Below are positions 194 through 64,000 of a stretch of DNA of 64,000 bases, piece by piece (the stretch's first letter is position 1; each line of letters begins with the position of its first letter). The stretch covers positions 186,001 to 250,000 of the forward strand of contig JAFCMP010000257.1 of NCBI GenBank assembly GCA_017506865.1, read 5' to 3'. The translations under genes were made by a program, and so were the position numbers. The stretch is from Tribonema minus (taxonomy: Eukaryota > Sar > Xanthophyceae > Tribonematales > Tribonemataceae). The notes under the pieces are model-generated. The model did no database searches and had not been told where the DNA came from. It saw only the letters and a program-made list of their open reading frames with translations.

Positions 194-3100
194 GCGCAAC
201 AAGGCCGGCACCGCCAAGCTGTTCCCCGAGTACCACGTCTACCTTGCGGATGGTGACAAGTTCCTCATGTGCAGCAAGCGCCGCCCCAACAACAAGACCT
301 CCAACTACATCATATCCATGCGCGCTGGCGATCTGAACCGCGGCAGTCCCAACTATCTCGGCAAGCTCAGGGCCAACTTCATCGGGACGGAGTTCCAGGT
401 AGGTGGCCATGTCTGTACCTCTATTGATGGAAATCTGAGGGGGGGGGGGGGGAATTTGGGGGTATTGGATAGGGGTTGTGCCTGGCGTTTCTGGGGGGAA
501 GCGCAGGAGCGGCTAGGTGAAGGTAGCACTCTGCGCGAGCAGTGCTCAGGTCAATATGACCGCCAGCTTATATTGTTATTGGTAGCAAAAGTGGGTTTTC
601 CGCAGTCATTGTGACTCACGTCGTTATGCTGCTGGTGCGTCCATCACCAATGGGCGTACCACCCTTCTCACAACCTGGTATTGACGGCAATTTGCCATCA
701 CAAATACAGTTTTGCACAAATGAGACATCCGGACACCTGGTCCATTGCTTCATCAACACACAGTCAACGCCTCTCTCACCAATTCTCCCCCCCCCCTCGC
801 CCCCTCCCCTCTCGGCAATGAACTTGAGCAGATCTTTGACCACGGTGCCAACCCCCGCGACCTACTGGCCGGCAACTTTGGCCACCCAGAGCAAGCGCGT
901 TCCGAGCTGGGCGTCGTTCTTTACGCCAGCAACGTTCTCGGCTCCAGGGGCCCGCGCAAGATGCAGGTGGCCATTCCCAAGATCAGAGAGGATGGTACGC
1001 CGCTGGCTTTGGCCAAGGGTACTGGGGCTGGTGCCAAGGGCACCATGCCGGTGAGTGCAAGGGTACCGTGATTCACGGAGTAAGAACCCCCCTCCTCTTG
1101 CATAAACCCCCCCCATCCTATTCTGTAGTAACTCTGAAGTATGAGACACCCCGTCTCTGTAGAGGTGTGCGTATGTGTACGCAAGACAGGGGGTAAGAAA
1201 TCTGCAACTGCATTGTAATACAGTGACATTGGGCAGAAAACGTTTTGGCATAGCCTGTTGGCTCGACTCTACCTGCCAATGTGCTTGGGGATATACGCTG
1301 GCAGAGTCAGCATCAGCACAATTTGTGTCCCCTGACTGTTTTAGCCTGCTCGTTTTTCCCATGCAGGAGGCGAACATTGTGCTGCACCTGTAAGGGGTAG
1401 TGCAGCTTCTCTGCAGTTGACCTCATGTGCTGATGTGGTACCTGCGTAGCTTGCCCCAGTTAGGGTTAGGGCAAGTCAGCCCTAGCCCTAGCCCTAACCC
1501 TGATTCTAACCACCAACCCTAAGCCTATTGCCCCTCATTGCCTCGTCCCCTCTGCAGGAGGGGGACATGATGATACCTACCAGCATCATGATGTTGCTGT
1601 ATTGGCAAACCTGCATCATCAGCCTGTAGCAACTGACCCTGACTGTAGTCCTAACCTAAACCCTGACTTCAAATGCTTACCCCCAACCCGCACCCCATCC
1701 TCCATTCCCTGCTGCAGGAGGAGGACATGATGATGCACCTCAAGAACCACAACTGCGAGACGCTCTGCTACCTCATCAACAAGCCGCCGCGGTGGAACGA
1801 TCAGGTGCGAATGCGATGACACCTGAGCACTGCTGTAGGCCTGAGCGATGCTGGGGTGAAACGACCAGGTGCAAATGTTATGACACCTGAGCAATGCTGC
1901 AGGGTGTGCTGAGAAATGCCGCAAAAGCAGTGACTGGTTGCGATGCTGCCTGAACATTGCAGCACGGGTGCTGAGTACTGCTGCAAGTACAATGATACCT
2001 GAGCACTGCTGGCGTAGCGAGTGAGCAATGCTGCCTGCAGGGCCTGTGTGATTTCACTCGTCGATGGGCAAGGTGAAAGTAAGCGACCCGAACCTAATGC
2101 TAACCTTGTGGCACCAGGAAGTGCACTATGGTGCAGTAAGTTGATGAGTGTACTTGGCTGGTATGGAGGCACATTTGTGTTGTTACAAACTCCTGTTCAA
2201 CTTGCAGTAAGGCGAAGGATGTCCATCGGACAAGGTACCTGTGCCGGTAGGATGAGCGCAAAATGTGTGGCATTAACATCAAAAAAGTTGCTGCACACTG
2301 AGTGAGCAGTAGCCTGTACATGACGCAACAGCTAGGGCAAACAGCTTACTTACCGTACCGTGCGGTCCATGCCACAAGCAATGAGTGTCAATGATGTTGG
2401 TGTTGAAAGCCATCACTGCACGTTCACCGCGCACAATTCCTCTGTCGACTCCAGCCTCAGTTAGCTGATGCCTAAAAGAGGGCTAGGATGAGGGGTTGAG
2501 TGTGATTCATGTGAGCGTTAACCTTATGCCTTAGATTTGATGCCACCACCTTGCCAGTCGGCCACCTTGCTGTCACCCTAAACATGCCGGCGGCACCTCT
2601 GACTGCCAGTGCTTACCCCTGCTGATCATCATCGCAGGTGTCCGCCTATGTTCTCAACTTCAACGGGCGCGTCACCATGGCCTCCGTCAAGAACTTCCAG
2701 CTGGTGACGCCCGATGACCACGAGACGGTGGTGCTGCAGTTTGGCCGCGTCGCCAAGGACGAGTTCACCATGGACTTCCAGTGGCCCATCACCCCCCTGC
2801 AGGTACTAACCCTAGGCTTATCTGACATGTGCCCCCCTCTTCCTGCCTTTGAATGATTGACTGTCGACCTCCGGGCCCATCACCCCCTGCAGATACGTAG
2901 GTGTCTCTGGCACTTGTCCCCACACCCTACCCCGCGTTCAACAGATTTCACTGTAGGCTTTCAGTGGCCAAGCACCCCCCTGCAGGCACGTAGGTAACCC
3001 TGATGCTTGTCTGCATGTTGTGCTTGTGCCTTCAAGTGCTGCGCTCTCCTGCGTCAACCGCTGAGACTGCGTACAAGTGTTGTGGAAGCCCCCGTGAATC

Positions 3101-3927
3101 GGCCTCAGGTCTGGTGCTGATGTTTTGCCTCTTCGTTAGGCTAATTGTGTCTGGTAGGGCTGCCAAGGCCCACTACTATGAAGTGGGTCATCCAGTTGCC
3201 CCCCTGATGTCAACCTTGTTATGGGTGAGACAGATGAAATGGTTGTGCTTTATGACCAGTGCTTCGCTGACCCTAAGCCTGGGTGCTTCAAATCACGGTA
3301 AACAAGTAAATGCTGGTGCCACTTTGCCCACTGCACCTTGCCCACTGTAGCAAGAGTTAGGGTCGAAGACCATGGGTAATGTGAATATTAGCAGGCACGA
3401 GTCAATGATCAGCCTCTGTGTTCAGCTGTCAGCAGCGGCGCCTTCAAAGCGACCATGTATGCTGACAGCCGCTGGGTGATCATTGCAACTTTTGTTCACC
3501 GGCAAACCACACTGGTATTGACACATTTGTCTCATGCAGCCTAGAACCTGCATGAGCACGTGTACTTCGAAGTATCAGTCAGTTACCTTACAACACTGAA
3601 TCCACTTGCATTTTGAAGCCTTTCATGCGCTCCGCAGGGGCGGGCAGACGCTGACCAATGTTGAGGAGTTGAGTTTGATTGAGAAATGTATAAAAGGCCA
3701 GTTGCTGAGCATTGTTGAGCGTAGATAGCTTCATTCCGCCGCTTGCAAGGAGCTGTCATGTGGCCGAGCAATGCTGCTCAAATAAACAAAGCGCACTTAC
3801 ACATCACAAACATTGGCAGTCAGCGCTGTGCTCATCAACCTTGCTTGTCCTTGTTGTGTTTGTCATCCCTCATCAGGCATTTGCCATCACGCTCAGCAGC
3901 TTCGACTCCAAGATTGCCTGTGACTGA
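194..3927 (+). CDS. Tubby-like protein, C-terminal tubby domain (5' end outside or unseen)
   Basis: Five exons join in frame: 194-398, 832-1050, 1718-1804, 2638-2802 and 3877-3927, giving 241 residues of the tubby phosphoinositide-binding domain. Visible family motifs are NYIISMRAGDL and YLGKLRANFIGTEFQ in the first exon, LYASNVLGSRGPRKM in the second, LNFNGRVTMASVKNFQLV in the fourth and the invariant tail AFAITLSSFDSKIACD before TGA. All introns are GT-AG and phase 0. The first listed exon starts at a CAG acceptor at 192-193; the N-terminal part of the protein must come from exons upstream that I cannot identify. Tubby proteins bind PIP2 at membranes and act in ciliary trafficking or signalling in many eukaryotes; the role here is inferred from the family only. 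Introns 2, 3 and 4 hold decayed copies of exon edges (see findings). Confidence 0.9.
1358..1585 (+). repeat. Decayed copies of tubby exon 3 acceptor edge
   Basis: Two segments, at about 1358-1392 and 1548-1585, resemble the real acceptor and start of exon 3 (1710-1745). Each has a GCAG acceptor followed by a GAGGxGGACAT-like stretch. Both have drifted and neither keeps a usable exon reading. Confidence 0.7.
1850..1895 (+). repeat. Decayed copy of tubby exon 3 donor edge
   Basis: The exon 3 end with its donor and the first intron bases (about 1792-1835) is repeated at 1850-1895. Both have GTGxAACGAxCAGGTGC followed by ATGACACCTGAGCA. Confidence 0.75.
2862..3016 (+). repeat. Decayed copies of tubby exon 4 donor edge
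   Basis: The exon 4 tail plus donor (about 2762-2830) recurs at about 2862-2910 and 2943-3016. The second copy keeps the order TTCAGTGGCC, CACCCCCCTGCAGG, then CCCTGATGCTTGTCTG. The copies are clearly worn. Confidence 0.7.
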
Positions 3928-9127: not shown

Positions 9128-9262
9128 GTGTGCGCCCAGGTGGTCAATGCAACGCATTTCGACCTGTACGACAATACAATACAGGTCGAAATGCGTTGCA
9201 TTGACCACCTGGACAATACAATACAGGTCGAAATGCGTTGCATTGACCACCTGGGCGCACAC
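9128..9262. repeat. 41-bp inverted repeat with a third, internal copy
   Basis: Left arm 9128-9168 and right arm 9222-9262 are exact reverse complements. A second copy of 33 nt of the right arm sits at 9180-9212, so the left arm can pair with either. The loop to the near copy is only 11 nt. The two right-hand copies are direct repeats joined by ACAATACAATAC-type spacers. Confidence 0.95.
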
Positions 9263-12224: not shown

Positions 12225-12995
12225 TCACCTGGCGCCGTGTTTCGCCCCCCGCCGCTGCCCCGCGCGCCAGACCTCCCTGCCGCCCTCCGCCGCGACAACG
12301 ACCGCCCCCTCTGCGCTGAGCGCTGCTGCGTACGCGCACCGCGACCGCGTCCCCCACCACCATCCCCACCTGTCGCCGCGCGAGCGCCACAGCGTGCGCG
12401 CCCCATCGCTCAGCTCCAGCCGCCCGCCGCAGCTGAGTCGCAGCGCGCACGCCTCGCAGTCACCGCTGCTGCTGCTGCTGCCCGCCGCGCGCCGCCTGCC
12501 GATGCGCTGCTGCAGCCACAACCAAAGCGCGGCGCCGCAGCGGCGGCGGCGGCGCGCAGCGTCCACGGCCCACACCGCTTGCTGCGCTGAGTCTGCCGCG
12601 AGGGGCGGTGGCAGTGCGCTGCTGCTGCTGCTGCTGCTGAGCGTCCCTGCGTAGAGGGCGAGGTTGCCGTTGCGGTGCAGCAGGAGGTAGTGCGGCGAGC
12701 ACTGCGCGGCGCCAGGGCCAGCGGCGGCGGCAGCGCGGTTGTCGCACGTGTTGACGAGTGCGCTGCCGGGGCGCATGAGCACGGCGGCGGCGGCGCCGCG
12801 TGCGGCTGCCGGCAGCACTGTGAGCACGGTCACTGCTGCTGGCTGCTGAGCAGGGGAGGTGACGCGTGTGCCCGTGGTTGGCGTGCGTGTTGCTGGCAGG
12901 ATCTGCGCCGTGGCGGCTGTTGTATAGGGAGCTGATGCTGCGTGTGCCACTGTGGGAGGCTCAATGCGCTCCTGCAGGAGGGGTTGTGTTTCCTG

Positions 12996-13036
<41 letters not shown>

Positions 13037-13514: not shown

Positions 13515-13545
<31 letters not shown>

Positions 13546-19500: not shown

Positions 19501-22500
19501 CGTTCTCGCGCGCATTTCATTGACTACATATGCTGTGTGCGTCAATGCAGTGACCCAGCGCGTTTCTTTCAATGCCGCTGTAAGCTTCTATGACCATGCC
19601 ACATGCTTATGCTACATGCATGATCCTGGTACCTAGACGCATGCAGCACATTCTCATCTATTTTGACGCCTCTGTGTCCCATTTTGTTGCGGTTGCAGCT
19701 TGCACCAACGCGCTGCTGCAGAGTGTGCAGGAGGGGCCCACGTCATGGATTGGTATACTGAGGCGCATGCAGCGCGTGCTGAAAGCCAAGCGCTTCAAGC
19801 AGGTGTGTATGTATGCGTGTATGCATGCAGCTCTTGGTAGACCGCATCGGAGGCATATCTATGCCTGAGGACTTTGGAGGGGGGTGGGAAAGGTGCAGTT
19901 CGTTTTACCGAGTACATGTGCTTTTTGTGGGTTTCCTGAGCGCCTCTGCAAGCACTGGATCCGTGCTTCTGATTGCTTACACATGAGGTACAATTTATGG
20001 TTAATTGTGAGTTCCACAACAATAAACTTTTATCTGCAACTTGAGACACACACAGTGCTGTTGAAGCCTGCAGTTGTGTGGTCCGGGCTAGGGTTAGGGT
20101 TAGGGTCAGGGTCAGTGACTCAATGTAACGCTCATCAGACAGTAAGCAGGGTCAGTGCTGGGGGTTCTTTCGATTTTCCAGTTTTTCCAGAACACGCAAA
20201 CTAGCATAGTCAATGGGAGTATGTGAACATGCACAAGGGCACTTGACAGAGATGCTTGCTGGAAAGCGCAGCATGCCGCACCGGCTTCCCTCCTTACTGG
20301 CGTTGAGCAGGTGGTGGTGACACTCAAGGCTCATCATGTGATGGTGATGATTCGCATGAATCGACACCTGCCCCTCGCACTGGCTGAGTTGAACCAGCCC
20401 CAACCTTTACTCTACCATTGTCATATGGATGCATTGTGCCGCAGGTGCCTCAACTCAGCACAATCACTGTGCCAAGTGAGACTTGTCAGTCATATTGCCC
20501 TGTGGAACTGACCCTGAGCTGTCCCTATTGGTCCTGAATTATTGTGTGCACCCATGTCTCATGCTGCAGGTGCCTCAACTGAGCACGAGCAAGGTACTGG
20601 ATCTGCAGGCCCCCTTTGAGATCATGCAGCCTGGGGGGCGCCACAGAAGCCTGCTCATAGGTAAGTACGTATAGCTGATTGGTACTGTATATAAGGTATG
20701 TAAGCATGCAGCCGGGGGGGTGCCCATATAAGCGTGCTCAGTGATAAGTATATGTACAGAAGCCTGCTCATTGGTAGGCAGTAGGTCTCGATCTGTGGTT
20801 TGAGATCACGGAGCACCAGCATTGCTTCTTCTTTGAAGTGGGACCCTGCCATTGTATGCTCGTTGGTGCACCGGCTGATACTTGCAACTTCAACCTGTTT
20901 CAGTCAAGGTCAGTGTTCCTGACGTTGGAGCGTGTTGCTGCAAACAGTCACAGGGCAGCGACCGAGCTGCGCAGAACCCCACAAGCCCTGGCATGATATG
21001 CAACCGCTGCTATGGAGTGCTGCCACCTCACTCATGAGAAGCCTCCGCTGCTATTGAGCAATGCCACCTCTTTGACATCATGTATGTAGGCCCCAGTATG
21101 CTGAGCATCCGCTGCTGTTGAGCACCGCCACCTCCAGGATCAACTACTGCGGCCAGCGCAACGAGCTGCGACAAACCCTACAAGCCCTTACATGAATTTG
21201 CTGCTGTTGGGCAATGCCACGTCATTCATATATGCAGGTCATTCATATACTTCTATGCCTGTACTCATGTATACAGGCCCTGTTTTGATTAGCGTCCGCT
21301 GCTGTTGAGCGCTGCCTCAGGCATCAACTACCGCGGCCAGCGCAACGAGCTGCGTGGCTGCCACAACGACGTCTTCGCAATGAAGCGCTACATCACGTCT
21401 CAGGGGTTCACAGAGACGGCCGATACCATGTGCGTGCTGGTGGACGATGGCCGACACAGCAGCCCCACGTGCGCGACCATTGTCGCAGGCTTCCGGTGAG
21501 TCACTCATTCACTCACTCACTCACTTGTTTGTTTGAAATGTGCCTGGCGCTGTTGCCTTCAGTACTAACAGCACATTGCAGCCGTACGTGCAAGAACATT
21601 GTCGCTGGCTGCAGGTGAGTACTCACTGACTCACTCGCTCTACATTTATGCTTTGCACTCAGCGCATCTCAATACGTCGCTGTTTACACGCACAAGCATG
21701 GTTGCTAGCTCCAGGTCAAGAATACTTTGACCCGGTGCAGGTGATTTCAGGTGCATGGCGCCTGTTCAACGGCCCTATGCAGGCGCCGAAGGCACACTTT
21801 TGCGATTGCAGGGGTGGGGTGCCGGTTCACACAGGATTCTGTTTCTGCTTGCGTGCACTGCGGCACCTCAGGGTAAGGGTATGGTTTGGGTCGGGAAGGA
21901 GTGGGCTCCAGCCTGTACAAGAGACGGCAATGCTGAGAAATTCACAAGTGCATGTCTGGCTCCTACCCCTAACCCTAACCCTAACCCTAGTTAGGCGCTG
22001 GACATACAAGTATAGCTTGGGATTGCGATCAACTCATAACTTATGTCTGAGTCGCGTGCGCTGTGGCGTCTCAGGGTGATTATTACGATTGTGGTGGGGT
22101 AGGACCAGGGTTCCAGCCTCAACAAGAGACGGCGATGTTGAGAAGTGCACGAGCGCATGCCTGCCCATCTCTTCAATCTTGCACCTTCTCCGCATGTGTC
22201 GCCGAGTAGGGTCAGGGATAGGGGTCCACCCTAACATTAGGGCTAGGGCTAGCGTCCTGGACTTAACCCAGCCTTGCCCTCGACCACTGGTATGCTGCCA
22301 CTCAACGCGAACTTGTCGCTAGCGTACACCACGGTATTCATGCATGTATGCAAGGGCATCACAAGCAGCGCTCTGCAACGCTCTTACGCCGTTCTTTGTC
22401 ATGGCGTGTTGACTTGATTTGCAGGTGGTTGGTGGACGGTGCCCGAGCAGGTGACTCGCTGTTCTTCCACTACAGCGGCCACGGCGGCAGCGTTCCAGGT

Positions 22501-25374
22501 ATGTATCTATGTGTATGTATGTATGTATGTATGTTCACATAGATCTAGGGTTAGATTAGGGGTGGCAGAGTTGAGTGGAGGATTAGGGCCAGTTCAAGTG
22601 GCACGTCCGCACAGACATAGACATAGAGCTCTTCTGAGGCAACTCCTCACGCAATTCACGGGCTTGGCTATGTGGTGATGAGACTTATTGTTTCAAGCAG
22701 CAAATGGGCCAGTAGGACATTCCGCGTTTCATCCAATTGCTTACGTATCGGCAGTATGTCAAGCACCCTACACTGGGGCCATGAGCAATCTGAGCCTTCA
22801 ATGTCGTATCATGTTGCCTGCTCCAAGCTTTCAGAACGCGTTGCTGCAGCCTCGGGTGTTAGCATACCTGCAAATCATGGTGTCGTGGACTGCTGCTTGC
22901 ATCTTCTGCCACGTACCATGCGCTTAACATTGGCAGGAACGTCATTCTGCATGTGTGTGTACTTGACAGCAGCCTGGTCTTAACTTTCGGTGCCTGTGCA
23001 GCGTTGAACTCGACATTTCACATGGCAGCCGCGCGCTGAATGATGCTAACCTGAGTGGCTGCTGCATGCGCTGCTGCAGACGACAACGGCGACGAAGCCG
23101 ATGGCATGGACGAAACCATCTTGCCACTTGACTATCTGACTGCGGGCCAGATTCGTGATGATGACATCTACAAGTTGCTGGTCAAGCCTCTGCCGCATGG
23201 GGTCGAGTTCACCATTGTCATGGGTAAGCACACTGAGCACAAGTGGTCCAACAGTGCATGTAGTGCATGTGTATTTCCAAATCAAGCCCTGATGTGCCAT
23301 TAATGTGAGAATTGTGTTACAGAATGCACATATCTAATACACTCTCGCATATAAATGCAACCACTTCATTCAAAATACGTGCGCTTACATATGCAGTCAG
23401 TCAAACTGGCCAGCATTGTTAATTATGGCCGGCTTGCATACAACTCATCTGCCTCAGACACTGGCAACATTCTGTATCCAACGCACGTACTTTTAAACTG
23501 CCTGAGCCCTGCTACATGCTTCCTCAAACTCTCCTTTTTTGCGACTATGCACTTGCGCATACTCGAACTATCAAGTGGCTAGCGTCAAATGAGCCACAAG
23601 TCAAGTGTGATGAGCCTGTTGTAAGTTTACATTTCAGGTGTATGTACGTGCGATCATGGAGCTGGACACACTTGCATGCATCGAGCCACGCGAGAGGTTG
23701 TGTAATCGTGCACATGGCAGAACGCAATGGTGCAGGCCGCCATGTGTACCTGGAAACCAGCGTTATTGAGCCAATATTCACTTCAAATTTAGGGTTCATG
23801 TATGTGCGGTTGTGGAGCTCAACACACTCTCATGCAGCGAACATGTTTCTTTCACGCCAGCTGCCATGGGAGAGGTTGTGTAGTAATGCACATGGCCACA
23901 TGCGATGGTGTAGGCCTCCGTGTGTACAAACCTGGACACCGTCGCAGTGTGGGTGCTTGTCGACACAGCGGCTTCTCTTGCGTAGGCCTATCGTAGGTAA
24001 AATTCCAGCTTATGCTGAAGGCGCTTCCTGAGTGCATCTCGCAATCTCAGCGGCTTCCCGTACGTCCTTTTGCTCACTGTCTTTTGCAGACTCATTGTGT
24101 CTTGTCTTGCAGCCCTAACCTGCTCTTGTTTCTACCCCTACTCTAACTGTTGACCCTAATCTAGCCTCGCAGCATCTCTCCTGCAATGCGTTGTGATTTA
24201 AGCTGTAGTGTGTGCCACAATACCGTCGGTCTAGCTCCTTTTTGTGCACCCTAAACCCAACCGCACTCCCCGACCTAACCCCAAGCCCTAAATCCACACT
24301 AACATCATCTCATCAATGACAAGTTGCCTTGCTGGCTGTATTGTGTGTGCGTTTTTGTCAGACTGCTGCCACTCTGGCACCATCATCGATCTGCCCTACT
24401 CACTGAGCGTTGATGACGAGCTGGTGCATGCCATGGACGCTGGCCAGGCGGTGCCGCAGCTGGTGAGTCACACTTTGAAGTTGAAACACACTAGAAGTAT
24501 GTTGTCAGAAGCCGGAGTCGGCGGCCAGGCAGTGCTGCAGCTGGTGTGTAACAGCATGAGCTGTGGCTTTGTACATTGTAGAAGTGAAGTTTCCTGGCCA
24601 AAAGCGAAGCCTGATACCATGGCACAGATAAGCAACATAACGCAGTCACGGTCAGCAGTTCATTCCTCAAGGCGTACTGCAAGCTTTGCAGTGCTCAACT
24701 TCCCTCTCAGGTTGGGCAAATTGCGCACGTGTGCTTCAGTGAGCATTAGGCCAGCTTCCTTAGAATGGCGCGATTTCTTGCTACAAGGCAGCTCCACAGC
24801 CGTAGACTTTTGGCCGCCCCATCGCTGAGTCATGTCAGTATTAAGCTATTTGTGGCACTCTGGGATTACGCTGCCACCGCGGCAAACCAGTCAGTGACCT
24901 TCATATGCATTGCACACTGTGCACGAGTCTCACAACTTGAAAGTTACCCTACCAATGAAGTTCATGGGTATTATTCACAAGAGATTGAATGGACGGTCTC
25001 GTGAGAGCATACCTGATGGTGAAGTAGGAACATATATACTGGCTGTTATTGAGCATGGTGTACTTTCAGCTCAGCGCCCACGGCAGTACAGTATACTGGA
25101 GGGTGAACTCAAACCACTTGCTACTGCGACTCACAGCATTCAATTTCTCTACAGCATAACGAACGCAGTTTGCTGAGCATATGTGCGCTGCTTCTCTCCC
25201 CCAATCATGCCATAGAAACCAAACGCGGACTTCAACATGGGCAAGATCCTGGGCATCGGCAAGCATCTCATGCGCATGCGCAAGGAGGGAAAGACGGCCA
25301 TGCAGATTGGCTCGCATGCTGCAACAGCGCTCGGCCTTGACAAGAAGTTGAAGAAGCTCGGTCTTGGCTTCTGA
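16512..25374 (+). CDS. Type III metacaspase (p10 before p20) with low-complexity head
   Basis: Exons: 16512-16532, 17080-18255, 18896-19001, 19699-19802, 20570-20660, 21321-21495, 22425-22498, 23080-23223, 24362-24462, 25216-25374. All junctions are GT-AG and keep frame; 716 residues. Residues 8-399 are Gly/Ser/Tyr/Pro/Gln-rich with repeats such as [13 protein letters not shown] and [12 protein letters not shown]. Residues 400-495 are p10 ([15 protein letters not shown], then [13 protein letters not shown], then [16 protein letters not shown]). The same exon runs straight on into p20 ([22 protein letters not shown]). Catalytic His577 is in HYSGHGG; Cys633 is in DCCHSG; the acidic loop [19 protein letters not shown] is complete. 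The C-terminus ([19 protein letters not shown]) is typical of the family. Metacaspases are Ca-dependent Arg/Lys-specific proteases linked to stress and cell death. The seven-codon first exon is the least certain part. Confidence 0.88.
16612..16794 (+). CDS. Possible small one-helix membrane protein, 60 residues
   Basis: The frame [16 protein letters not shown] through a hydrophobic stretch [13 protein letters not shown] to a basic tail ([11 protein letters not shown]) lies inside the proposed first intron of the metacaspase. The ATG is preceded by AAGA. It may be a nested small gene, or a sign that the metacaspase start is elsewhere and this is a separate upstream gene. I do not recognise a family. 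Confidence 0.35.
   Translation: MASALFHIITMSKEIVDRCNMDSLRTYVGHGLIACVAFWTIYGHRKASAKRDNVLGGVKC
19473..19497 (+). repeat. Interstitial TTAGGG repeats
   Basis: About four units of TTAGGG lie inside a metacaspase intron. Other runs are at 20089-20116, 21965-21990 (CCCTAA), 34396-34441, 51788-51812 and 62296-62320, nearly all intronic. Confidence 0.9.
20436..21190 (+). repeat. Decayed copies of metacaspase exon acceptor edges
   Basis: The acceptor edge of the p10/p20 exon (20560-20600) recurs at 20436-20478 (GCAGGTGCCTCAACT shared). The edge of the next exon (21300-21365) recurs at 21118-21190, keeping ATCAACTACTGCGGCCAGC and CGCAACGAGCTGCG, and more weakly at 20934-20993. Confidence 0.75.
21580..21640 (+). 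repeat. Decayed copy of metacaspase exon donor edge
   Basis: The end of exon 21321-21495 with its donor and the ACTCACTCACTC stretch recurs at 21580-21640 as ACATTGTCGCTGGCTGCAGG followed by TGAGTACTCACTGACTCAC. Confidence 0.7.
24500..24556 (+). repeat. Decayed copy of metacaspase Cys-exon donor edge
   Basis: GGCCAGGCGGTGCCGCAGCT with its donor (24441-24475) recurs at 24519-24550 as GGCCAGGCAGTGCTGCAGCT followed by GGTGTG. Confidence 0.7.
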
Positions 25375-33550: not shown

Positions 33551-35474
33551 TCAGCTCTCTGTCTCAGGAGCGGCAGCATTGCTGGAGACAGGTTTCGGGG
33601 AAACCATGGGGGAGGGCAGCCAGTTGAGCCACTTGAGGAACTCAGAGAATGACACCAGGCCGTTGTTATCGAGGTCTAGGCCATCGAATGCGGAGTCAAC
33701 ACTGACATCTCCTCCTAGCAGCCCCATGCTCTCAAGCAGTTGTCCCAGCTCACTCTTGTTGAGTGTGCGCGAGCCGTCTTCGTCGTAATGGTTGAAGAGT
33801 GCCATGGCCTTGCAGAGTACCTGGCCAGGGGGCGAGCAGTCGAACAAGTGTGTAGTTAAGGAGGGGATGCCCATCTGGCCATGTCATCAGTGCACTGCTG
33901 AAGGACCATTGAGGCAGGGACACTAAGTCCACTTGATTACAACGCAAAAACAGGCTCTGGTACATGGCAGGCTTTATCAACTAAGCAAGTTCACGCCCTC
34001 AGCAATGACCAAGAAAGCGTACCTGGTATTTGGCTTCATCTGCGAGGATGCTGACGCCCTGTTTGGAGCGCAGCCATGCTGTGAACTCCTCCTGGTCAAC
34101 GCTGCCGCTGCCGTCTGTGCAAGAGAAGGATGAGGTGCATCACTTGGTCAGCGACTGTGTGTGCATGTGATGTAGTGAATGGCGTGTTGACCACACTGAG
34201 CAGGGTGGCTGCACGCTGCTTCACAGGCATCTGCGCTTTGAGCTCAGACTGTACATGCTGAAAATGCTAAGCAGTGGTGCCAATAGACTGCTGCGCACGA
34301 AGCAACGCATATCCTGGTCAGTGCCGCCGTTGCCGCGAGTGAAAGCAAAGGCGATATTTGAGATTTCGAGTGCTGTGCGCTGCAGACATAGATGCTGACC
34401 CTAACCCTAAGACGCCGTACTCTAACCCTAGCCCTCTGAGTGTGACAAGGGTACACCAGACGTCAACTGCCCCCAATGTTCTGATGGGAGCACAAAGATT
34501 TGTGCCATGGTTGATGCCATCAACGGAGGTTCCAATGCACTGCAGGCACTGAGGTCATTGGTACACAAGCGAAAACGATTTGCAGAACGCTGACTCGAGA
34601 TCATCTTGGTTCACGCTGCCGCTGTTGTCTTTCAAAAGACATGGGCGTATCATACCTATGCAGCGGCTTCGCAAATACAATGACAGGACCAGGTAAACTG
34701 GCCCAGTGTCGTGGCTGTCAGGGGGCCAAAAATTGTGGAGGGGGTCATTCCAGCAGAACAAAAGGACCAATGAAGCCCCAGGTGCCTCAGTACTGGCCAG
34801 TTCAGCGACATGGACTATGTGAGTGGTGCACACAGAGCGCCCACCAAACGAGCATCGCAGGTGGCGTGGCCACGAGGCTGCTGTGTTGCAAGACCCATGT
34901 ATTATCACTGAGCGGCTTTGGTGATGCAGAATTCAATCAATGCCGGGGACACAATCCATCCAGAGGCATTTGATTTGTGTCAGGTGCACACAGCACTGCT
35001 GCATCAGCAAAGCATGCCAGCCAGCATGCTTTTTTTATAAAGCATGCTGGTCGGCGGCAACTTCACGATCTCAGTATGGCTGGCATGTTACGTACCAGAT
35101 GATGATATCAGAGCGAGCAGATACGTGGGGCCAGTGGTGTCCCATTGAAGTGAACTGGAATCTGTACAGCCGCTGCTGCTGCTGCTGCTGGCTACAGAAG
35201 GCGTTTCTAACAAGTGGCGATGTCAAGCCTAGCACACCACTTTCACCAGGCACCTGGGATGCACACACCATGTGCCTTCCTCACCTTTGTCCATGAGCAT
35301 TAGCGCCGCCTCAGCACGCTCCGAGCTCAGGCCAAGCTGCTCCTCTACCAGGACTGTCAGCTCACTTTCGTCCAGCTCCTTGTTGGAGTTAGTATCTAGC
35401 GCTTTGAACATGCTGTCCGCGACCACCTTGGGGACGTCGGCTGAGCCAAAACCCACAGTGCCATGGCTGCACAT
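33551..35474 (-). CDS. Four-EF-hand calcium-binding protein
   Basis: Exons complement(35285-35474), complement(34023-34114) and complement(33551-33820) join in frame to give 183 residues. ATG 35474 is the first Met; an acceptor-like AAAG at 35499-35502 leaves an earlier exon possible. Loops in order: DTNSNKELDESE, DKDGSGSVDQEE (completed across the first splice), DEDGSRTLNKSE and DLDNNGLVSFSE. All four keep Asp at position 1, Gly or its usual substitute at 6 and acid at 12. The size and paired layout resemble calmodulin-like sensors. The C-tail is Pro/Ser-rich. Intron 1 (34115-35284) holds two further EF-like acceptor edges, one of which is an open loop. Confidence 0.85.
34318..34360 (-). repeat. 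Decayed copy of EF-hand exon 2 edge
   Basis: Read on the minus strand, AACGGCGGCACTGACCAGGA follows a CTTTCACTCG stretch and resembles the start of exon 2 (GACGGCAGCGGCAGCGTTGA). It has lost the acceptor AG. Confidence 0.55.
34556..34640 (-). repeat. Open copy of EF-hand exon 2 edge (possible alternative exon)
   Basis: On the minus strand an AAAG acceptor is followed by an open frame that completes an EF loop after the shared 5' exon: DNSGSVNQDDLESAF, then CKSFSLVYQ and TGA. Phase equals that of the true exon. Confidence 0.55.
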
Positions 35475-37970: not shown

Positions 37971-40900
37971 ATGCGGCTTCCATCACCGAAACAGGCAGCA
38001 ATTCTGGCTGCTTGCCTGGCATCCACGACAGTATGCGACGCGCTGCAAGACAGCAGCAGCAGACGGGTGCCATCCGTACCGCTGCCGGAACCTCTGACAG
38101 CGGCGCAATCATTTCGGGGTGGGGTGCAAGGATCCTGGGAAGAGAGGGTGGCAGAAAGGAAACCTGGAGAAGTGAGGCCTCCGCGTGGAGCCGAGTGGTC
38201 TTACGATGACGACATGAGGAGCGGACGGCCGGGTGGCGGTGGAGCTGCAGCCAGGCGACGAGGAGGACGTGGCACGCCGGGACGCAGGTGAAACGCATCT
38301 GTTGGTGTGGGAGCAGTAAACATGCACACTGAGGTGCTTCCGAGTTCGCATGTTTCTTAGTCGATGCCTGCCCAAAACTGTCGCTCGTGCTGCTCGAGCC
38401 GTTGCTCACAGCGACGCGTGTAGGGCGTAAGGTTGGCACTTCAAAGAACATCGATGAGTTCAGTATCGCAGCGTCCAACTACCATGTGAGCTGTGCGATC
38501 GTCAGAATCTGCTGCACATCCAGTTTGAAAGTAAGATCGGCATTTAGATCTAATGCATTCATTCTCCTTGACATTTGCGATGGCTGAATGTACGTTTTAC
38601 TTGTCGCACGTTGGGCAAACGGCACTCTACTGCGTGAGCTTGAGCTGCTGCATGTAAGCGAGGAGTGGCGCGGTGCCAAGGCCTCTGCTCTAGCCCACAT
38701 ATAACCTATACATATAGCAACCGATTCACTATTCAGATAGACAAAGACGCGATGTGCGCTGCCTGTTGACAGCCACATACTACTCTGTCAAGCAGGGTCT
38801 GTGCTGTCCTCATGCTTGTGCAGGATAGTCTCTGCTAAGTAGTGCTTAAGTGCCTGAACAGAGAGCGCTGCTGTGCATAAATTTCACCCCATGTCTCTGT
38901 GCTGGAACGCTTGAATTACTCTCCACATCAGGGTGACGCTCATGCCAGTCACTCAGGCAGCTGGCCGGTCACAGCCAAAGAGAGCTGCGCAGATTGCGTA
39001 CAATAGTACATCAACTAAAAAGTGCCCAGCTTCAAGGGGCTTCTCCAGTGACTGAGGTTTGCCAGTCGCTCGAGCGAGAAGCAGCTGATTTCAGGCCCTG
39101 GGCAGACAATCAACCCGACAAACTTCATAGTGTTGAACGCCTTTTCTGTTTCCATAGCTAGGTGCTATGGAAGCTGGAGGCGTGCTGCACAGCAGCAGTG
39201 CTCAGATTATCAGCGATTCGTCGCACGCGTGATGCCACGCGTGCAACGTGGAAATCTTCGCCACCGAATCCAGTGTTCGCAAGTGCTGTGAGGCCGGCTG
39301 CGTGAAGTCTTTACCTTAATGTATTGAAAATGTTTCATGTGAGGTGCTTGGTCTACGCACAACAGTGGAGCTCACGAATACTCCTTAGCTCAGCAAAAGG
39401 GCATCACACTTGTGTTGTCTGGATCCAGTCTTCGCAACCTGTGTCAGGCTTGCTGCGTGACAGGTATTCATGCCTTGGATCGGCTATTATAAGCGCAAGA
39501 ATGGAAGCAGAAGGGAATCAACTGATGTTATATACTGGCGTCGAGCTTGAGATGCATGTGTCTGCATTCAGCTAGGTAGGTGCAGTGTCCTTTTGGGAGG
39601 CTTTGTACTGAGCGATGCCCTTGCACTGCAACAACAGAAAAACCTTCAGCTAAGAAAACGTCAGTGGTGTGCGCAGCAGGACCAGCCTATGACTCTAAAT
39701 CGCTTCACTCAAGTGCACCACTTCAATCAAGTGTCCAATACTCTGTAAATGAGATTTGAAGTGCTAGACTGGTGTACCCCACCTAGGTCAACTGATGCAC
39801 ACACATGACTCACCAACCCTGATGCTGCTGCAGGAGGGCGAAGGTCAAGGGGCAGCATCGTCATGGTCCAACTGCAACTCATGACCTTCAACCAATACAC
39901 CTGCCGATTCTCAAAACCTATTGCTGCTGCAACTCCACAACCCTGATGTTGCTGCAGGAGAGCGGAGGTCAAAGGCGGCACAGTTGTGGTTCACACACTG
40001 GTGGTTCTGAGCTTTATTGTGCACGCCGTTAGGAACGTCATGCCACTGGACTTTTTGCAGCTGCACCACTCGCGTCCCCAGCTGTGGCAGCTGGTGACGG
40101 CGCTGTTCATGCACGCGGACAAGGAGCACCTCATGTTCAACATGTTCATGCTGTAAGTTCAACATTGAAGTGCTATTCATGCATAGCACCTAATGCACAC
40201 CGATAAGCAGCACCTAATGTTCAACTGTTCATGATGTGAGTTCAGTATTGAAGTAAGATACAGTGCTGTTCTCAGAGTCTGCAAGTGCAATGCTTGAGCA
40301 ACACTGTTCAGTCAGAGGGAGCGTGATGACCATGCATACTGACATACACCCATTGTTTATGAAGTCCATGCCATGGGTAGGACGTTGCATGACACATGCC
40401 CACATGTCCATGTCATTTTAAAGTCAACCTCAAAACTCACTGGATCTCGCTCCATGACATTACGCTGAATTCATGGCGTGACCATCCTCTGTTGATGCGC
40501 GCTGGTGGCTAGCCATGCATCATCACCTCTATCAGTTTCAACCTCAAACACTTCCATGCCCAGCTTCAAGCGCACGGCCTTCTGCAGAAATGAATTGATT
40601 ACATGATGCCTTGTGCACCAGTTGGCTACGTCACGCCACTCATGCTTACAGTTTGTCATGTGAAGCCGTCAGTAGCTGAAAACTGCCACCATTGTCGGTC
40701 GTCTGCCACCTATTTGTAGCCCTGACCACTGCTGCTGGTGTCCGTTGGCTGCTGCAGACTGGTTTTCGGCAAGATGGTAGAGGAGGATGTGGGCAAGAGC
40801 GGTGAGCACTGCTGCTCATTTGTAATTGTTATTGCTTGAGCGCTGACGTGGAATTTAGTAAGCACAAATACTGACACAGGCAAGAGCGGTGAGGACCGCC

Positions 40901-43612: not shown

Positions 43613-46199
43613 TCATTTCTCAGCTTTGCGCAAAGCCGCGCGCGCCGTGCGCTCCCGCGCGTATTCACGCAGGCACAGCACGCCCGCCACCAGCAGCAGC
43701 CCCGTAGCGTGGTAGCGGTGCACCGTTAGCGGGTGGTGGTACTTGACGAAGCGGCCATCAGCGCGCACGACTTGAGCCTGTATGTCGCTGCAGGGCTTGC
43801 ACTGCGGGTAGAAGCGCTGCGTGACGGTGAGGCCGGTGACTCTCCGCCACAGGCGCGCGTTGGCCTGTTGAAGTTGAGAATGAACATTGAAGGGAACAAC
43901 AATCATGAACTGAATGTTGATGAATTCATTGATCATGGTGAGGTGACTCTCCGCCACTGGCGCGTGCTGGCCTCTTTAAGTTGAAAAGGAGCAACGCCAT
44001 GGAGACGGATGATGAATTCATCGAAACAGCGTTGCGGCCACCCTCATCCATGTAACAATGCACTGGTACCGAGCATCCACGTGGCAGCGTTGAGCATCCA
44101 CATGGCAGCCCCTACCATCCATACGGCAGTGCTCACAGTCATGTGGCAGCAGCACTCAACCCCGTGCTCTTGCTGCACCGAGTGGCGAAGTTGTGATCCA
44201 TGTCACAACGTTCATCACCACCCAACAGCACTCACACATCATCACGCGTGGCAGCACTCACCCTTGTGACATGCTTGGAACAGTGACATGTGGTTCGCGT
44301 TGCAGCACTCACAATCAGTGTGGCAATGCTCAGCGTTTGATGCGGTGACGACGCTCTACCTTCCTTACGTACTTGAGCAGTGGCATGTGGTTTTCGTTGC
44401 AGCGCTCACCACTTACGTGACAGCACCGCTCGATCCTCATCACGCGCGCTGTAGCAGTCACCACTTACGTTACAGCAACGCTCAACCATCATCACGCATG
44501 GCAGCGCTCACCTTCTTGACGTACTTGAGCGGCAGCATGTGGTCCGCATTGTAGCGTTCACACTGATGACCACCATCACTACGTCTGGGGTTCAGCATCC
44601 ACATGGCAGCGACCACCGCACCCGTACGGCATCGCTCGCCACCCACTCGGCAGTGCTCACCCGTTACGCGCGCCAGCGCTCAACCCTCATCACGTGGCAG
44701 TCCGTTGTAGCAGTCACCACTTATGCGCCAGCAAAGCTCGACCCTCATCACGCGTGGCAGCGCTCACCTTCTTGACGTATTTGAGCGGCGGCATGTGGTC
44801 CGCGTTGTACTTTGCGCCGGCGCGCCGCCCGCACGAGTGGCACCCATACGTCTCCCCCAGCGCATTGATCACGCCGCGCTCCTCCGTCGTCGCATACAGC
44901 AGCGTCGCCGGCAGTGACGCCTTGAACCTGCTGAATGCCCCCAGATTGTCTATGAGGCTCGGCGCGATCCCCCCAAATGTCCCCCCCAGGCACTTAAATA
45001 GGGCCAGTCCGAAGGCGACAGCGCTAGCCTCCGCAGGGCCCGGGTCGGAGGCCGTTTCTATCGTGGACTGAACTGCAAGTTGAAGATTGCCGGTGGTGAG
45101 CGCTGTGGAGACGGCCTCGCTGACGTGCAGCGCCACGAGCGACGCTCCCGCGACGGTTACGAAGCCGAGGGCGTTGGGGATGCCCAGGGGGGTGGAGGCA
45201 GCCACCCGGAGCACTGCCCCCTGTACCGCCTGGCTCAGGTTGAGCGCCATGTAGAAGGTGGCACCGCCGGCAGCGACCTGACATGTGCATTGTGACACTG
45301 GGCGTTAGGGTGAGCATTTGATATCAGCGCCATTTTCGGCTCTGGTCGTGCCTAAGGTTGACCGCCAAGCAAAATCTCTTTCTCTAAGGCAGAAATGTGC
45401 GAAGCTTTCAAGACGGTAATCGGAGCAAGAGGTATGTGCCCTGTGCAGATACAAAACGCCACGATGCACTATACATTAAGCGGGGAGCTCCCCATGGCCA
45501 CCGCAGCGAGCGAGGCGACATGATGCCCATGTGTCTTCTGCGCCAATGCGCGTCGCTGCATTAGGTGCCATCATTCACGCACGATCAGGCCCTGACACCT
45601 CAGGTCGGTGGCTGCCGCTGCACCCAGAAGAGCAATGGCTATTTTGTTAGGAGGTTTTAAGCACAACACCAGTGTACTTGTTGGCGCAATGCTGCTGTGT
45701 ATGCACACGATAACATGATTTGCCCGCTAGCCAGATCTAGATAAGGCATGCTGGTGCCTATTCCGAGCTCTCACTACATATATCATTACGCATGTACACG
45801 TGCAAAAACTGCAGCAGCATCAGACAACTGGATCCTGGCACTTAGATCTACAGCTGCTGGTCGACCATGAATTGAAGGATTGAATGCACATGAGGGCTCG
45901 AGACTCTGCATGCACGCACCTGTGCCAGCCCATGCACTGTACTGGAGAGAGCCTGTATGAAAGCGCGCTTCACCTTCCTCTCAGAAAGCCCAGCATCTGA
46001 CATCCATTCCGTCGCTGCCTTTTCAACCTGTGTCACCTGGAGAGAGGGAAGTGGCAGTTGCTGTAAGATCCAGTAAGCGAGAACAGTGATGCAGCCAGGC
46101 TTTCTGAGCGTTCAGTACCTCTTTTTGACGCGAAGCCACAACACGCTCGCTGCGGGAACCGACGGGCTTGTCATCTTTCGGCGTCCAAGGCCACGGCAT
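43613..46199 (-). CDS. Membrane protein with HNH/treble-clef-like zinc site, function unknown
   Basis: Exons complement(46119-46199), complement(45920-46036), complement(44768-45277) and complement(43613-43864) join, all phase 0, to 319 residues from ATG 46199 (MPWPWTPKDDKPVGSR). Residues 67-200 hold several hydrophobic or Gly/Ala-rich helices (ALGFVTVAGASLVALHVSEA). Then come C212-H-S-C215, A-D226-H227-M-P-P and, over the next exon, Q-C258-K-P-C261. CxxC, DHxxP and CxxC in this order is the layout of HNH-type treble-clef sites. A last hydrophobic stretch (YHATGLLLVAGVLCL) ends before a basic tail. I recall similar unnamed eukaryotic proteins but can give no function; nuclease activity is not implied. 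ATG lies 83 bp from that of HSBP1. Confidence 0.75.
43930..43990 (-). repeat. Decayed copy of last-exon acceptor edge (HNH-like gene)
   Basis: GGTGACTCTCCGCCACTGGC, then GCGTGCTGGCCTCTTTAAGT at 43939-43981 parallels the true edge at 43837-43876 (GGTGACTCTCCGCCACAGGC, GCGCGTTGGCCTGTTGAAGT). Confidence 0.85.
44050..44766 (-). repeat. Intronic array of decayed exon donor edges
   Basis: Read on the plus strand, the true exon end (44761-44812: CTCACCTTCTTGACGTATTT then GAGCGGCGGCATGTGGTCCG) recurs at about 44512-44556, 44362-44402 and 44264-44307, with decreasing likeness. Between them lie many worn units of TGGCAGCGCTCACC, the donor part alone. Confidence 0.8.
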
Positions 46200-60966: not shown

Positions 60967-63900
60967 CTACTTCAAGGATGCGTACATGGCCGCGATTTCC
61001 TTCTTGAAGAGCTTCTTGGCCTGGAAGCGCTTGAGTTTGAAAGTGGGCGTGAGGAGGTCATTGTCCACGCTGAAAGGCTCCACCACTAGGTGCACGGCCT
61101 GTGTGTGTCGGAATCAGCACGCGGGCAAAGGGTGAGCTGAAGTTTGAAGTGGAGTGGGGCATATGCACAAAGGTGACTGCGACGCTGAAGAGAGCACATT
61201 GCGAGACCATGGGCAGCGGCAGCGCTCAACAGCAGCAGCGCACAACAGCAGCAATCACAGCAGCAGCAGCAGCAGCAGCAGTGCTCAATAGCAGCGACCA
61301 CAGCAGCAACGATCAACAGCAGCCACAGCCGCAGCAGCAGCGGCAACCGCAGCAGCATGGCCACAGCAGCAGCAGCAGCATGGCCACAGCAGCAGCAGCA
61401 GCAGCAGCAGCGCTCAACAAAAGCAGCAGCAGCAGCAATGCTTCACAGCAGCAGCAGCAGCGCTCAACATCAGCCGCAGCAGCGCTCATCCCTCACCTTG
61501 GCGAGCTCGAACCCGTGCAGCTTGGCGGCGCGTCCCGTCACCGTCATCTCCCCCAGCACCCACTTCACCGCCGCGGCATCCTTCACAAGGTCCTCAGGCT
61601 TGGCCGACTTGCCGTTGTCCGCTGCCCACTTCCCCAGGACGTCAAAGTCGGGCACAACGATTGCCACCACGCACGACTGCAGAGAGTCGCCGTAGACAAA
61701 GGACTGCGCGACGGCGGCGCACGTCGCGTACACGTTCTCCACCTTCTCCGCCGCGACGTACTCGCCCTGGCTGAGCTTGAACATGTTCTTGACGCGATCC
61801 ACGATCTTGAGCTGGCCGGTGGGGAGCCAGATGCCGACGTCGCCCGTGTGCGTCCAGCCGTCAGAGTCAATGGCCTCTGCCGTCTTGTCCGGCATCTGCA
61901 GCGGGGGAGAGATGAGCAGGCGCACGCATCAGGAAGGAGCTGATTGCGGCAGTCAGAGCTTGGCGTCAACTATTCAAGTGCCAAAGTCAATTATCACACA
62001 TGCAGCCGTTGCGTCGATGGCCTTTGCCGTCTTGTCTGGCATCTGCGACAGTTAAGAGATCAGCAGGCGCGTTATTGATGGCGGCAAGGCTTTGAGCAGC
62101 AGGGGAGAGCTCAGCAGGCGCGTTGTGAACAGTGGCAAGGCTTTGGGTAGAGGGTGCCAGACACAAGGCAGACTTTTTTCGCACTGGAAAAGTGCAAATT
62201 GTTGAAGTGCTGCCCACATGCAGTATGGCCTTTGCCGGCTTGTCTGGTCTCTGCAGCGGGAAAGAGATTGGTAGATGCATGGGTGAGCAGTGTCAACCTA
62301 ACCCTAACCCTAACCCTAAGGCATTAATTATTCAAGTTGAGGAGCCCGTGTTCCTCCTTGTGCAAAGCAAAGGCCATCATTGACACGGCCTTTAAGCAGT
62401 AGCACCTCATCAGCAATACCTGCCCAGCTGTTGACCTGCACAAATCTTGCGACAACGTTGTAAGCAAACAGGTCTATACTGCACATACTCCAACCCCACT
62501 GATCACCATCACCGTCATCATCAACAACATGCCTACATATACATGCCCCACCCCTCCCACTCACCATGTAGTACCCCTTGAACACGGAGGGCCCCCTGAA
62601 GCAGATCTCCCCCCGCCCCGCGCAGGGGATGGCGTTCCCCTCCCCCGCATCGTGCTCCGTGTCAGTGCTCAAATAGCCCATGTCTGGCACCGAAACGAGC
62701 TTGATCTCGGTACTGGGAGAGGGACCTCCAACGTGTCCCGAGCTCACGTCGGCAATGCTGGTGAGGGTGCCCGCCGCAGCGGTTTCAGATTGGCCGTAAC
62801 TGTTGAAGGGGCAGGGATATCATGGAACGATGGGTTTAGCCACGGCGGTAGGAGAATGGAAGTTACAGCTGGGATATGTGTAAATCACGGTGCTTTACCT
62901 CAGGCGGGTCTCAGTTGGATGAAAGAACCGCAGCAGAACACTGTTACAAACCACATGCGCGGTGATTAATGTTGAGAACCATGTGTATGTACTGCGTGGT
63001 ATTCAATTGGCGCAATGCAAGGAGTGTGCACAGCAGGGTTGGTAATTACGGCACATTGAGGTACTTCCTTACGCGCCAATGATCACCAAGAGCGCCACGA
63101 GCAGGAAGCCAATGACTACGACCACATTGAGTTTCATTTGATATTACCGACAGGGTGAAGATTTGAGATTCAGGGGTAGAATTTTGAGCTAGGGTTGGAA
63201 GCATTAGTAGGGTTGAGGTTTTGCACTCTCCCTCAATCACCACTGATGTGTAGGAGATGGTGTCTTCCACTACTGTAAGAAGAGTTTGAGGTAGATCTAC
63301 ATAGGTCTCCATGACCACCGACGAGAAGACCAAGCGCAGAAAGTCTATGATGTCATATACTACTTGACGTTAGGGGTTTGAGGTAGTTGGGGTTTATAGA
63401 GGGTCCAGATATTGGTTTTGCAATGTGCGCTCACCCCTTGCTGACCACCGACGAGACGGCCACTCGCAGAAAGTCCATGATGTCATCTACTACTTGAAGT
63501 TGGGCGTTTGAAGCAGTTAAGGTTTGAAGTAGGTTCAAAGTTAGGGTTTGAGGTTTGTGCTCAACCCTAAGTGACCATTAACAAGAACACAACGCGCAGG
63601 AAGTCCATCGCATCAATTTCAGGCAGGACCAGGCTTGAGGTATAGCTAGGGCTTAAGTGTAAACAGATGTTGCAGTTCGCACTCACCCCTCAATCACCAT
63701 TAATGAGAACCCTACTCGCAATGACGCCATCCACTAATTGAAGTTAGGGTTTTGAAGTAGTCGAAGTTTGAAGTAGGGTCAAGTTTAGGGTTTGCAGTTC
63801 GCGCTCACCCCTCAATGACCACCGACGATAACACCATGCGCGAAAGCCCATCACGGTTATGTCAGGCGGGACCAGTGGCTAGAGTTTGTAGTTACACTTT

Positions 63901-64000
63901 GAAGTATTAGGATTTGAAATCTGCGCACTCACCCCTCGATGACCACCGACGAGAAGACCACGCGCAGGACGACAATGACGACTCTCCACTTTTTGAAAAG
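60967..64000 (-). CDS. Long-chain acyl-CoA synthetase, C-terminal half (5' exons beyond window)
   Basis: Exons complement(63933-64000, continuing out), complement(62565-62799), complement(61497-61895) and complement(60967-61098) join in frame to 277 residues. Blocks of the AMP-forming family: FSSVVIEG-YGQSETAAAGTLT, SGHVGGPSPSTEIKLVSV, GRGEICFRGPSVFKGYYM, GWTHTGDVGIWLPTGQLKIV, DRVKNMFKLSQGEYVAAEKV, and the tail PFSVDNDLLTPTFKLKRFQA ending MYASLK. It activates fatty acids to CoA esters with ATP; this class is usually membrane-bound. The N-terminal half is outside the window. Introns hold copies of exon edges, including a long array at 63073-63860 and CAG tracts at 61220-61490. Confidence 0.9.
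61220..61490 (+). repeat. CAG-rich tract in acyl-CoA synthetase intron
   Basis: Several short CAG runs separated by CTCAAC or GGCCAC units. The GCGCTCAACA-like spacing recalls worn copies of a donor edge mixed with triplet expansion. It is intronic by the exon model. Confidence 0.7.
61995..62275 (-). repeat. Decayed copies of acyl-CoA synthetase exon acceptor edge
   Basis: Plus-strand text of the true edge (61868-61915: TGGCCTCTGCCGTCTTGTCC, GGCATCTGCAGCGGG) recurs at 62008-62065 (TGGCCTTTGCCGTCTTGTCT, GGCATCTGCGAC) and at 62225-62272 (TGGCCTTTGCCGGCTTGTCT, GGTCTCTGCAGCGGG). Confidence 0.9.
63073..63860 (-). repeat. Array of acyl-CoA synthetase exon donor-edge copies
   Basis: At least six units at roughly 63073-63130, 63300-63335, 63433-63475, 63560-63600, 63678-63715 and 63795-63840 copy the true exon end at 63925-63985. 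On the minus strand most read FLRVxFSSVVIEG-like and several end in GGTGAG. Spacing in the array is about 110-135 bp, larger at the low-coordinate end. Spacers share TTAGGGTTTGAAGTAG-like sequence. Confidence 0.85.

What the first reader, a model, noticed from the sequence alone, without database searches (positions are those of the whole stretch)
1358..64000. Introns repeatedly carry decayed copies of the neighbouring exon edge, splice site included
Seen directly in six genes (tubby-like, metacaspase, EF-hand, rhomboid, HNH-like, acyl-CoA synthetase). Copies of an exon start with its acceptor lie upstream of the true exon; copies of an exon end with its donor lie downstream. Copies span 20-70 nt of exon plus adjoining intron and grow worse with distance. 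This looks like a genome-wide process that enlarges introns by repeated local duplication across splice junctions and leaves decoy splice sites. Chance does not explain so many ordered cases. Cause (replication slippage, a repair pathway, or a selected role in splicing) is unknown.
Basis: partly seen in the sequence, partly recalled or inferred. Interest (0 to 1): 0.88.

Follow-up and report, generated by a model that had tools for sequence, protein, structure and literature searches.

The report
Exon-edge copies buried inside introns
In several genes of this DNA, the introns hold worn copies of the edge of the neighbouring exon with its splice signal, most simply explained by repeated local duplication across splice junctions that makes introns longer, although why the copies stop within about 44 bases of exon is unexplained.

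Summary
Of 49 splice junctions that I placed, 13 have a copy of their own edge in the adjoining intron (p<=0.005 each, against 1000 distant segments); 0 of 49 on the other side, 0 of 49 inverted. Five of the 13 junctions were placed by eye with the repeat in view; without them 8 of 44 remain.

Copies of exon starts lie upstream, copies of exon ends downstream. In 19 of 20 copies 10-44 nt of exon are recognisable (the other is a weak 58-nt stretch). Exon parts are better preserved than intron parts; mismatches fall on all codon positions, so copies are not coding; decoy splice sites survive no better than decay predicts.

Best explanation: serial local tandem duplication across splice junctions. 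The order follows because only the original site keeps the protein intact. A simulation of uniform duplication does not fully fit: it predicts more intron-only repeats, and deep-exon copies that are nearly absent (1 of 149 positions). A filter or bias at splice junctions is therefore also needed; a splicing-linked mutation process remains open.

The parts
1718..1804 (+). tubby-like exon 3, source of acceptor copies
   Evidence: spliced alignment; Pfam Tub on exon 2
1483..1589 (+). copy of tubby exon 3 start with acceptor GCAG (cut at about 1558)
1362..1389 (+). second copy of tubby exon 3 start with GCAG
1806..2033 (+). repeated intron start after the tubby exon 3 donor (nearest copy has only CAG of the exon)
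2638..2802 (+). tubby-like exon 4, source of donor copies
2854..3018 (+). two copies of tubby exon 4 end plus intron start (cuts about 2893 and 2986; GT lost in both)
20437..20466 (+). copy of metacaspase exon a0 start with acceptor GCAG
20570..20660 (+). metacaspase exon a0
   Evidence: placed by eye; continues in frame into exon a
20702..20799 (+). two copies of metacaspase exon a0 end: one with about 40 nt of exon (by eye), one with 18 nt
20953..21170 (+). copy of metacaspase exon a start with about 120 nt or more of intron
21321..21495 (+). metacaspase exon a
   Evidence: (alignment begins one base before the acceptor used)
21573..21653 (+). copy of metacaspase exon a end with GTGAGT
24362..24462 (+). 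metacaspase exon d; donor placed by eye
   Evidence: acceptor, donor
24523..24553 (+). copy of metacaspase exon d end with GTGTGT
34023..34114 (-). EF-hand exon b; donor placed by eye
34312..34351 (-). copy of EF-hand exon b start (AG lost)
34601..34639 (-). second copy of EF-hand exon b start with AAAG
39808..39870 (+). copy of rhomboid exon a start with CTGCAG
39958..40152 (+). rhomboid exon a; acceptor placed by eye
   Evidence: Pfam Rhomboid on a later exon
40192..40266 (+). copy of rhomboid exon a end with GTGAGT
40879..40899 (+). short copy of rhomboid exon b end with GTGAGG
   Evidence: p=0.009
44768..45277 (-). HNH-like exon, both ends placed by eye
   Evidence: reading frame; no Pfam family at E<=1
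44512..44553 (-). HNH-like exon end, copy 1 (93%), followed by GTGAGC and further intron similarity
44360..44399 (-). HNH-like exon end, copy 2 (80%)
44262..44301 (-). HNH-like exon end, copy 3 (71%)
61497..61895 (-). acyl-CoA synthetase exon c
   Evidence: AMP-binding_C hit
62003..62070 (-). copy 1 of acyl-CoA synthetase exon c start with GCAG
62225..62279 (-). copy 2 of acyl-CoA synthetase exon c start with GCAG
63068..63980 (-). array of up to eight copies of an upstream acyl-CoA synthetase exon end plus donor (the last two recognised by eye only); the original could not be singled out and may lie beyond base 64000; not in the junction counts
   Evidence: spacings 124,122,122,130,130,75,157

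Best explanation
Short stretches of genes (displacements here 81-256 nt for nearest copies) are duplicated locally, head to tail. When a stretch straddles a splice junction, the gene survives only if splicing keeps using the original site, so an exon-end copy ends up downstream in the intron and an exon-start copy upstream. Each event lengthens the intron and leaves a decoy. The decoy then decays as non-coding DNA while its source exon is held by selection, so exon-edge copies stay recognisable after intron-intron repeats of the same age have faded. New events at the same junction push older copies outward. A further filter must act on top, because copies hold no more than about 44 nt of exon: most likely, longer exon pieces bring enough exonic splicing signal for the decoy to be used, and are purged. 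Shown: local direct duplication, its sidedness, lack of coding constraint in the copies, better preservation of the exon part, the shallow exon reach. Inferred: the tandem mechanism in the worn cases, survivorship, the purging step.
For: Direct repeats exceed inverted ones 4- to 26-fold and drop to background beyond 600 nt. Intron-side similarity runs the whole distance between original and copy in two of 20 copies (metacaspase exon a donor 119 of 119 nt, tubby exon 4 donor 90 of 90 nt, both 64% identical), and continuous units are seen in the HNH-like gene and the 63-kb array (346 nt at 250 nt spacing, 559 nt at 130). Sidedness 13:0. Exon part more alike than intron part in 16 of 20 copies, p=0.006; nearest copies only, 11 of 14, p=0.029. 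Mismatches by codon position 29:22:38. Two near-identical (97%) tandem duplications lie away from any junction I placed: 331-nt unit at 29496-30160 and about 131-nt unit at 30395-30657.
Against: In simulations of uniform duplication with survivorship and decay, the six runs with a mean junction rate of 0.28-0.39 have an intron-interior rate of 0.25-0.34 and deep-exon copies at 0.04-0.17. Observed with the same score limits: junctions 14 of 39, intron interior 168 of 1129 positions (69 of 943 without the two repeat arrays and the CAG-rich intron), deep exon 1 of 149. The observed ratio of junction to interior rate is about 2.4; sets of 20 introns in those six runs gave 0.62-1.90, sets at lower rates up to 2.44. 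Adding a 44-nt cap makes the junction rate too low (0.08-0.18). Nearest donor copies reach 39, 42, 42 and 44 nt at four junctions and about 40 nt at a fifth (by eye), with 18, 21 and 10 nt also measured at donors; a gradual filter does not predict such a cluster. In many copies intron similarity stops after 5-30 nt although the displacement is 80 nt or more.
Confidence: 0.55

Rival explanations
1. The duplications are aimed at splice junctions by a process tied to transcription or splicing (for example breakage at paused polymerase or RNA-DNA hybrids near exon ends, repaired with local copying), which sets breakpoints within about 44 nt of the junction on the exon side.
For: Junction-to-interior ratio about 2.4 against 0.62-1.90 in matched simulations; exon reach at most 44 nt at 13 of 13 junctions scored, probability about 2e-6 under uniform breakpoints and no purging (the tubby exon 3 donor row set aside); shallow exon 40-mers 19 of 75 copied, deep ones 1 of 149; cluster of donor reaches at 39-44 nt; unannotated DNA has few local direct repeats (0.050 of 3035 positions at score 14 or more, inverted 0.036) against 0.226 of 934 in intron interiors, decoys included.
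Against: Two 97% duplications in the window are not at junctions. None of 14 junctions in other genes has a copy. I know of no pathway that leaves this product.
Confidence: 0.22
2. The decoys are kept by selection because they act in splicing (competing or regulatory splice sites).
For: 16 of 20 decoys keep the splice dinucleotide; between decoys the exon-like part is more alike than the intron-like part (63-kb array 0.55-0.70 from -30 to 0 but 0.39-0.48 further out, against 0.36-0.59 on the intron side; HNH-like 0.63-0.83 against 0.37-0.57; the array may include the original).
Against: 16 of 20 is not above decay (expected 0.64, p=0.10); the decoy-decoy difference is also expected if each was copied in turn from a conserved exon; no codon-position constraint.
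Confidence: 0.08
3. The copies are remnants of once-used alternative or duplicated exons.
For: Whole-exon duplication is a common known event (recalled); some decoys have an AG near their exon-like start (read by eye, not counted).
Against: Copies carry one splice site and about 10-44 nt of exon; deep exon sequence is nearly absent from the introns (1 of 149).
Confidence: 0.06
4. Chance similarity, low-complexity sequence or assembly error.
For: The window is rich in CAG/GCT and G/C runs.
Against: The strongest low-complexity stretches were left out; distant and inverted controls are near zero in introns and at junctions; copies are worn (exon parts 59-100% alike, median 80%), unlike assembly duplicates.
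Confidence: 0.02

Closest known systems
Intron gain by tandem genomic duplication (PMC3443670, PMC2891723: passages seen; PMC4974935: search listing and start of abstract)
   Same: Local head-to-tail duplication inside a gene, with splice signals inside the duplicated stretch.
   Different: There the stretch is exonic with a cryptic AGGT and a new intron is born. Here the stretch straddles an existing junction, copies intron as well, and lengthens an existing intron.
[quoted passage not shown]
   Same: Short local repeats left by repair.
   Different: Those are short repeats flanking a new intron, not serial copies of an exon edge within it.
Minisatellite or tandem repeat in an intron (recalled)
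   Same: The 63-kb array has units of mostly 122-130 nt.
   Different: Each unit carries an exon end and usually a donor site; the other junctions have one to three worn copies.
Introner elements of green algae (recalled)
   Same: A process that multiplies intron sequence.
   Different: Introners resemble each other between unrelated genes; here junction segments do not match introns of other genes beyond score 19.

Membership tests
Intron gain by tandem genomic duplication | Duplicated stretch is direct and head to tail | tested here: inconclusive
   Direct, with 0 of 49 inverted; intron similarity runs the full displacement in only 2 of 20 copies, plus continuous arrays in two genes
Intron gain by tandem genomic duplication | Duplicated stretch is exonic and supplies both splice sites of a new intron | tested here: not met
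   Copies include intron sequence next to a junction that already exists and hold a single splice site
Introner elements | Similar sequence in introns of unrelated genes | tested here: not met
   Junction segments score at most 19 against introns of other genes, 20.5-57 against their own in 11 of 37; whole introns were not compared with each other
Duplicated or mutually exclusive exons | Copy holds a whole exon with both splice sites and an open frame | tested here: not met
   10-44 nt of exon in 19 of 20 copies, one splice site, mismatches at all codon positions
Intronic minisatellite | Array of several similar units head to tail | tested here: inconclusive
   Met for the array at 63068-63980, not for junctions with one or two worn copies
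Repair-made templated insertion | Both orientations, microhomology at the joints | tested here: inconclusive
   No inverted copies at junctions but local palindromes exist elsewhere; microhomology not tested

The most novel reading that the evidence does not exclude
A mutation process linked to transcription or splicing copies the neighbourhood of splice junctions, reaching at most about 44 nt into the exon, back into the adjoining intron again and again, so that introns in this lineage grow from their ends and keep a readable record of it.
Probability: 0.2. Interest if true: 0.88.

Novelty: new variant of a known kind. Interest (0 to 1): 0.6.

Why it matters
How introns become long without transposons is, to my knowledge, poorly documented. 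If local duplication across junctions is common in this lineage, exon-edge fossils would date intron growth event by event, explain clusters of decoy splice sites, and mislead gene prediction. The sharp limit on how much exon is copied makes a link between mutation, repair and splicing directly testable.

Tried and rejected
No whole genome was held and no relatives were found in the prokaryote or virus collections (two window proteins tried), so genome-wide and cross-species tests were impossible. Rfam gave nothing at gathering scores, ARAGORN in its bacterial setting no tRNA. Inverted-repeat counts missed palindromes that pair with themselves (seen), so inverted counts come. One search aligned several originals to themselves when the displacement was small; those rows were not used and one search replaced it. 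In one search the looser alignment of one tubby exon 4 copy ran on to 58 nt of exon and of the two EF-hand copies to 45-51 nt. One search shows why this was not used: at looser scoring, random pairs also extend 83-114 nt (medians), while at the scoring and at a stricter one they extend 0 nt (medians) and real copies stay at or below 44 nt. Exception, set aside: the tubby exon 3 donor copy at 176 nt, 58 nt at 59% identity (1 nt at the strict scoring). In one search the metacaspase a0 donor row for 81 nt snapped to the 113-nt copy and is counted once; that nearer copy is measured by eye only. Deep-exon counts: one search included the reading frame 28834-30269, whose 97% duplication gives 0.129 of positions; I left it out (2 of 323, which also counted single-exon genes) and restricted the count to 65-120 nt from placed junctions, own intron only, (1 of 149 from 32 junctions). 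The acceptor of the 17-kb reading frame was not found and was dropped. Two donors (tubby exon 2, acyl-CoA synthetase exon b) were moved by eye to GTGAGT sites near the alignment ends; neither has a copy. I first expected uniform tandem duplication plus survivorship to explain everything; the simulations do not fully agree, hence the moderate confidence. They are a toy: one intron of about 650 nt, exons of 150 nt, invented rates. Eight literature searches (listings only, empty) showed me no paper that by title or start of abstract describes serial exon-edge copies inside introns; that library lacks most subscription journals. The organism was not identified; 'green alga' is a guess.
Full report
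What was checked. The window is intron-rich eukaryotic DNA with 51-56% G+C in 14 of 16 4-kb blocks. Exons were placed by spliced alignment to recalled protein templates and by reading frames. Pfam supports tubby, peroxiredoxin, EF-hand, HD, rhomboid, AMP-binding and dual-specificity phosphatase; the metacaspase rests on the template alone, and the HNH-like exon has no family. This gave 49 junctions: 37, two metacaspase a0 junctions found, and ten of moderate confidence added. No transcript data were available.

The repeats are real. A self-comparison, apart from codon-repeat stretches, found local direct repeats concentrated in and around the six genes. Rates fall to background beyond 600 nt, and inverted repeats are 4 to 26 times rarer at the same distances. 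Against 1000 distant segments per junction, 13 of 49 have a copy in their own intron at p<=0.005, 0 of 49 on the other side and 0 of 49 inverted.

Anatomy. Copies of exon starts with their acceptor: tubby exon 3 (two), metacaspase exons a0 and a, EF-hand exon b (two), rhomboid exon a, acyl-CoA synthetase exon c (two). Copies of exon ends with their donor: tubby exon 4 (two), metacaspase a0 (two), a and d, rhomboid a and b, HNH-like gene (three), and an array of up to eight in the acyl-CoA synthetase gene whose original could not be identified. The tubby exon 3 donor has copies of the intron start. The recognisable exon part is 10-44 nt in 19 of 20 measured copies, though 9 of the 10 source exons are 87-510 nt long; stricter scoring gives the same ceiling, looser scoring is uninformative. 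Exon 40-mers centred 20 or 30 nt from a junction have a copy in the own intron at 19 of 75 positions; those centred 65-120 nt away at 1 of 149. Within 20 nt of a junction 30% of 153 positions have a local direct match at score 16 or more. Under breakpoints uniform between 10 nt and the smaller of displacement and exon length, 13 of 13 at or below 44 nt has probability about 2e-6; this ignores any purging.

Decay. Exon parts are more alike than intron parts in 16 of 20 copies (p=0.006), as expected if the source exon is constrained and the copy is not; longer alignments on the intron side may add to the difference. Mismatches are 29, 22 and 38 at codon positions 1, 2 and 3 (of 188, 190 and 184 sites; not clearly different from even, p=0.09). 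Splice dinucleotides survive in 16 of 20 decoys, no more than expected (p=0.10; the expectation of 0.64 assumes 80% identity per site). The gradient with distance is clear in the HNH-like gene and weak overall.

How it works. Local head-to-tail duplication straddling a junction gives this order, because only the outer, original site leaves the protein unchanged. The exon acts as a fixed reference that lets old events be seen. But in simulation, uniform duplication that yields junction copies as often as here also yields intron-only repeats and deep-exon copies more often than seen, and capping the exon part at 44 nt makes junction copies too rare. So either longer exon pieces are purged and detection favours junctions more than the toy model allows, or the breakpoints are biased toward junctions. 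The present data cannot decide; two near-identical duplications (29496-30160, 30395-30657) lie away from placed junctions, which favours the first.

Compared with what is known. Tandem genomic duplication is an accepted route to new introns when it copies an exonic AGGT (PMC3443670 and PMC2891723, passages seen). This case has the same kind of mutation but a different target and outcome: existing junctions are straddled and existing introns grow. Introners and duplicated exons were tested and do not fit. Eight searches of open-access papers showed no description of serial exon-edge copies in their listings.

Verdict. A genuine, non-random feature; ordinary in its likely raw mechanism, unusual in density and in the shallow exon reach. 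Whether it is genome-wide needs the rest of the genome.

Noticed in passing
14978-15403: Palindrome of about 430 nt (outer 52-nt arms 88% alike, 71% over all); 15091-15142 and 15232-15283 are an inverted pair that may include coding sequence.
   Followed up: partly
31843-32278 and 9128-9262: Two more local palindromes; the second combines a perfect 41-nt inverted pair with a perfect 42-nt tandem repeat, so it looks young.
   Followed up: no
29496-30160: 331-nt tandem duplication, 97% alike, inside an open reading frame; the unit is not a multiple of three and shifts the frame.
   Followed up: partly
30395-30657: About 131-nt tandem duplication, 97% alike, in the presumed intron after position 30268.
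   Followed up: partly
19473, 20085, 21962, 51791, 62297: Short interstitial runs of TTAGGG or its complement, 3.8 to 4.7 copies each; at least 21962 and 62297 lie in placed introns.
   Followed up: no
unannotated parts of the window: Local inverted repeats are nearly as common as direct ones there (0.036 against 0.050 of positions), but at background in intron interiors (0.009 against 0.006 far), as if hairpins in introns were removed (score 14).
   Followed up: partly
12228-14936, 55742-58201: Long reading frames full of CAG/GCT repeats; the first has a FYVE match below Pfam's cut-off.
   Followed up: no
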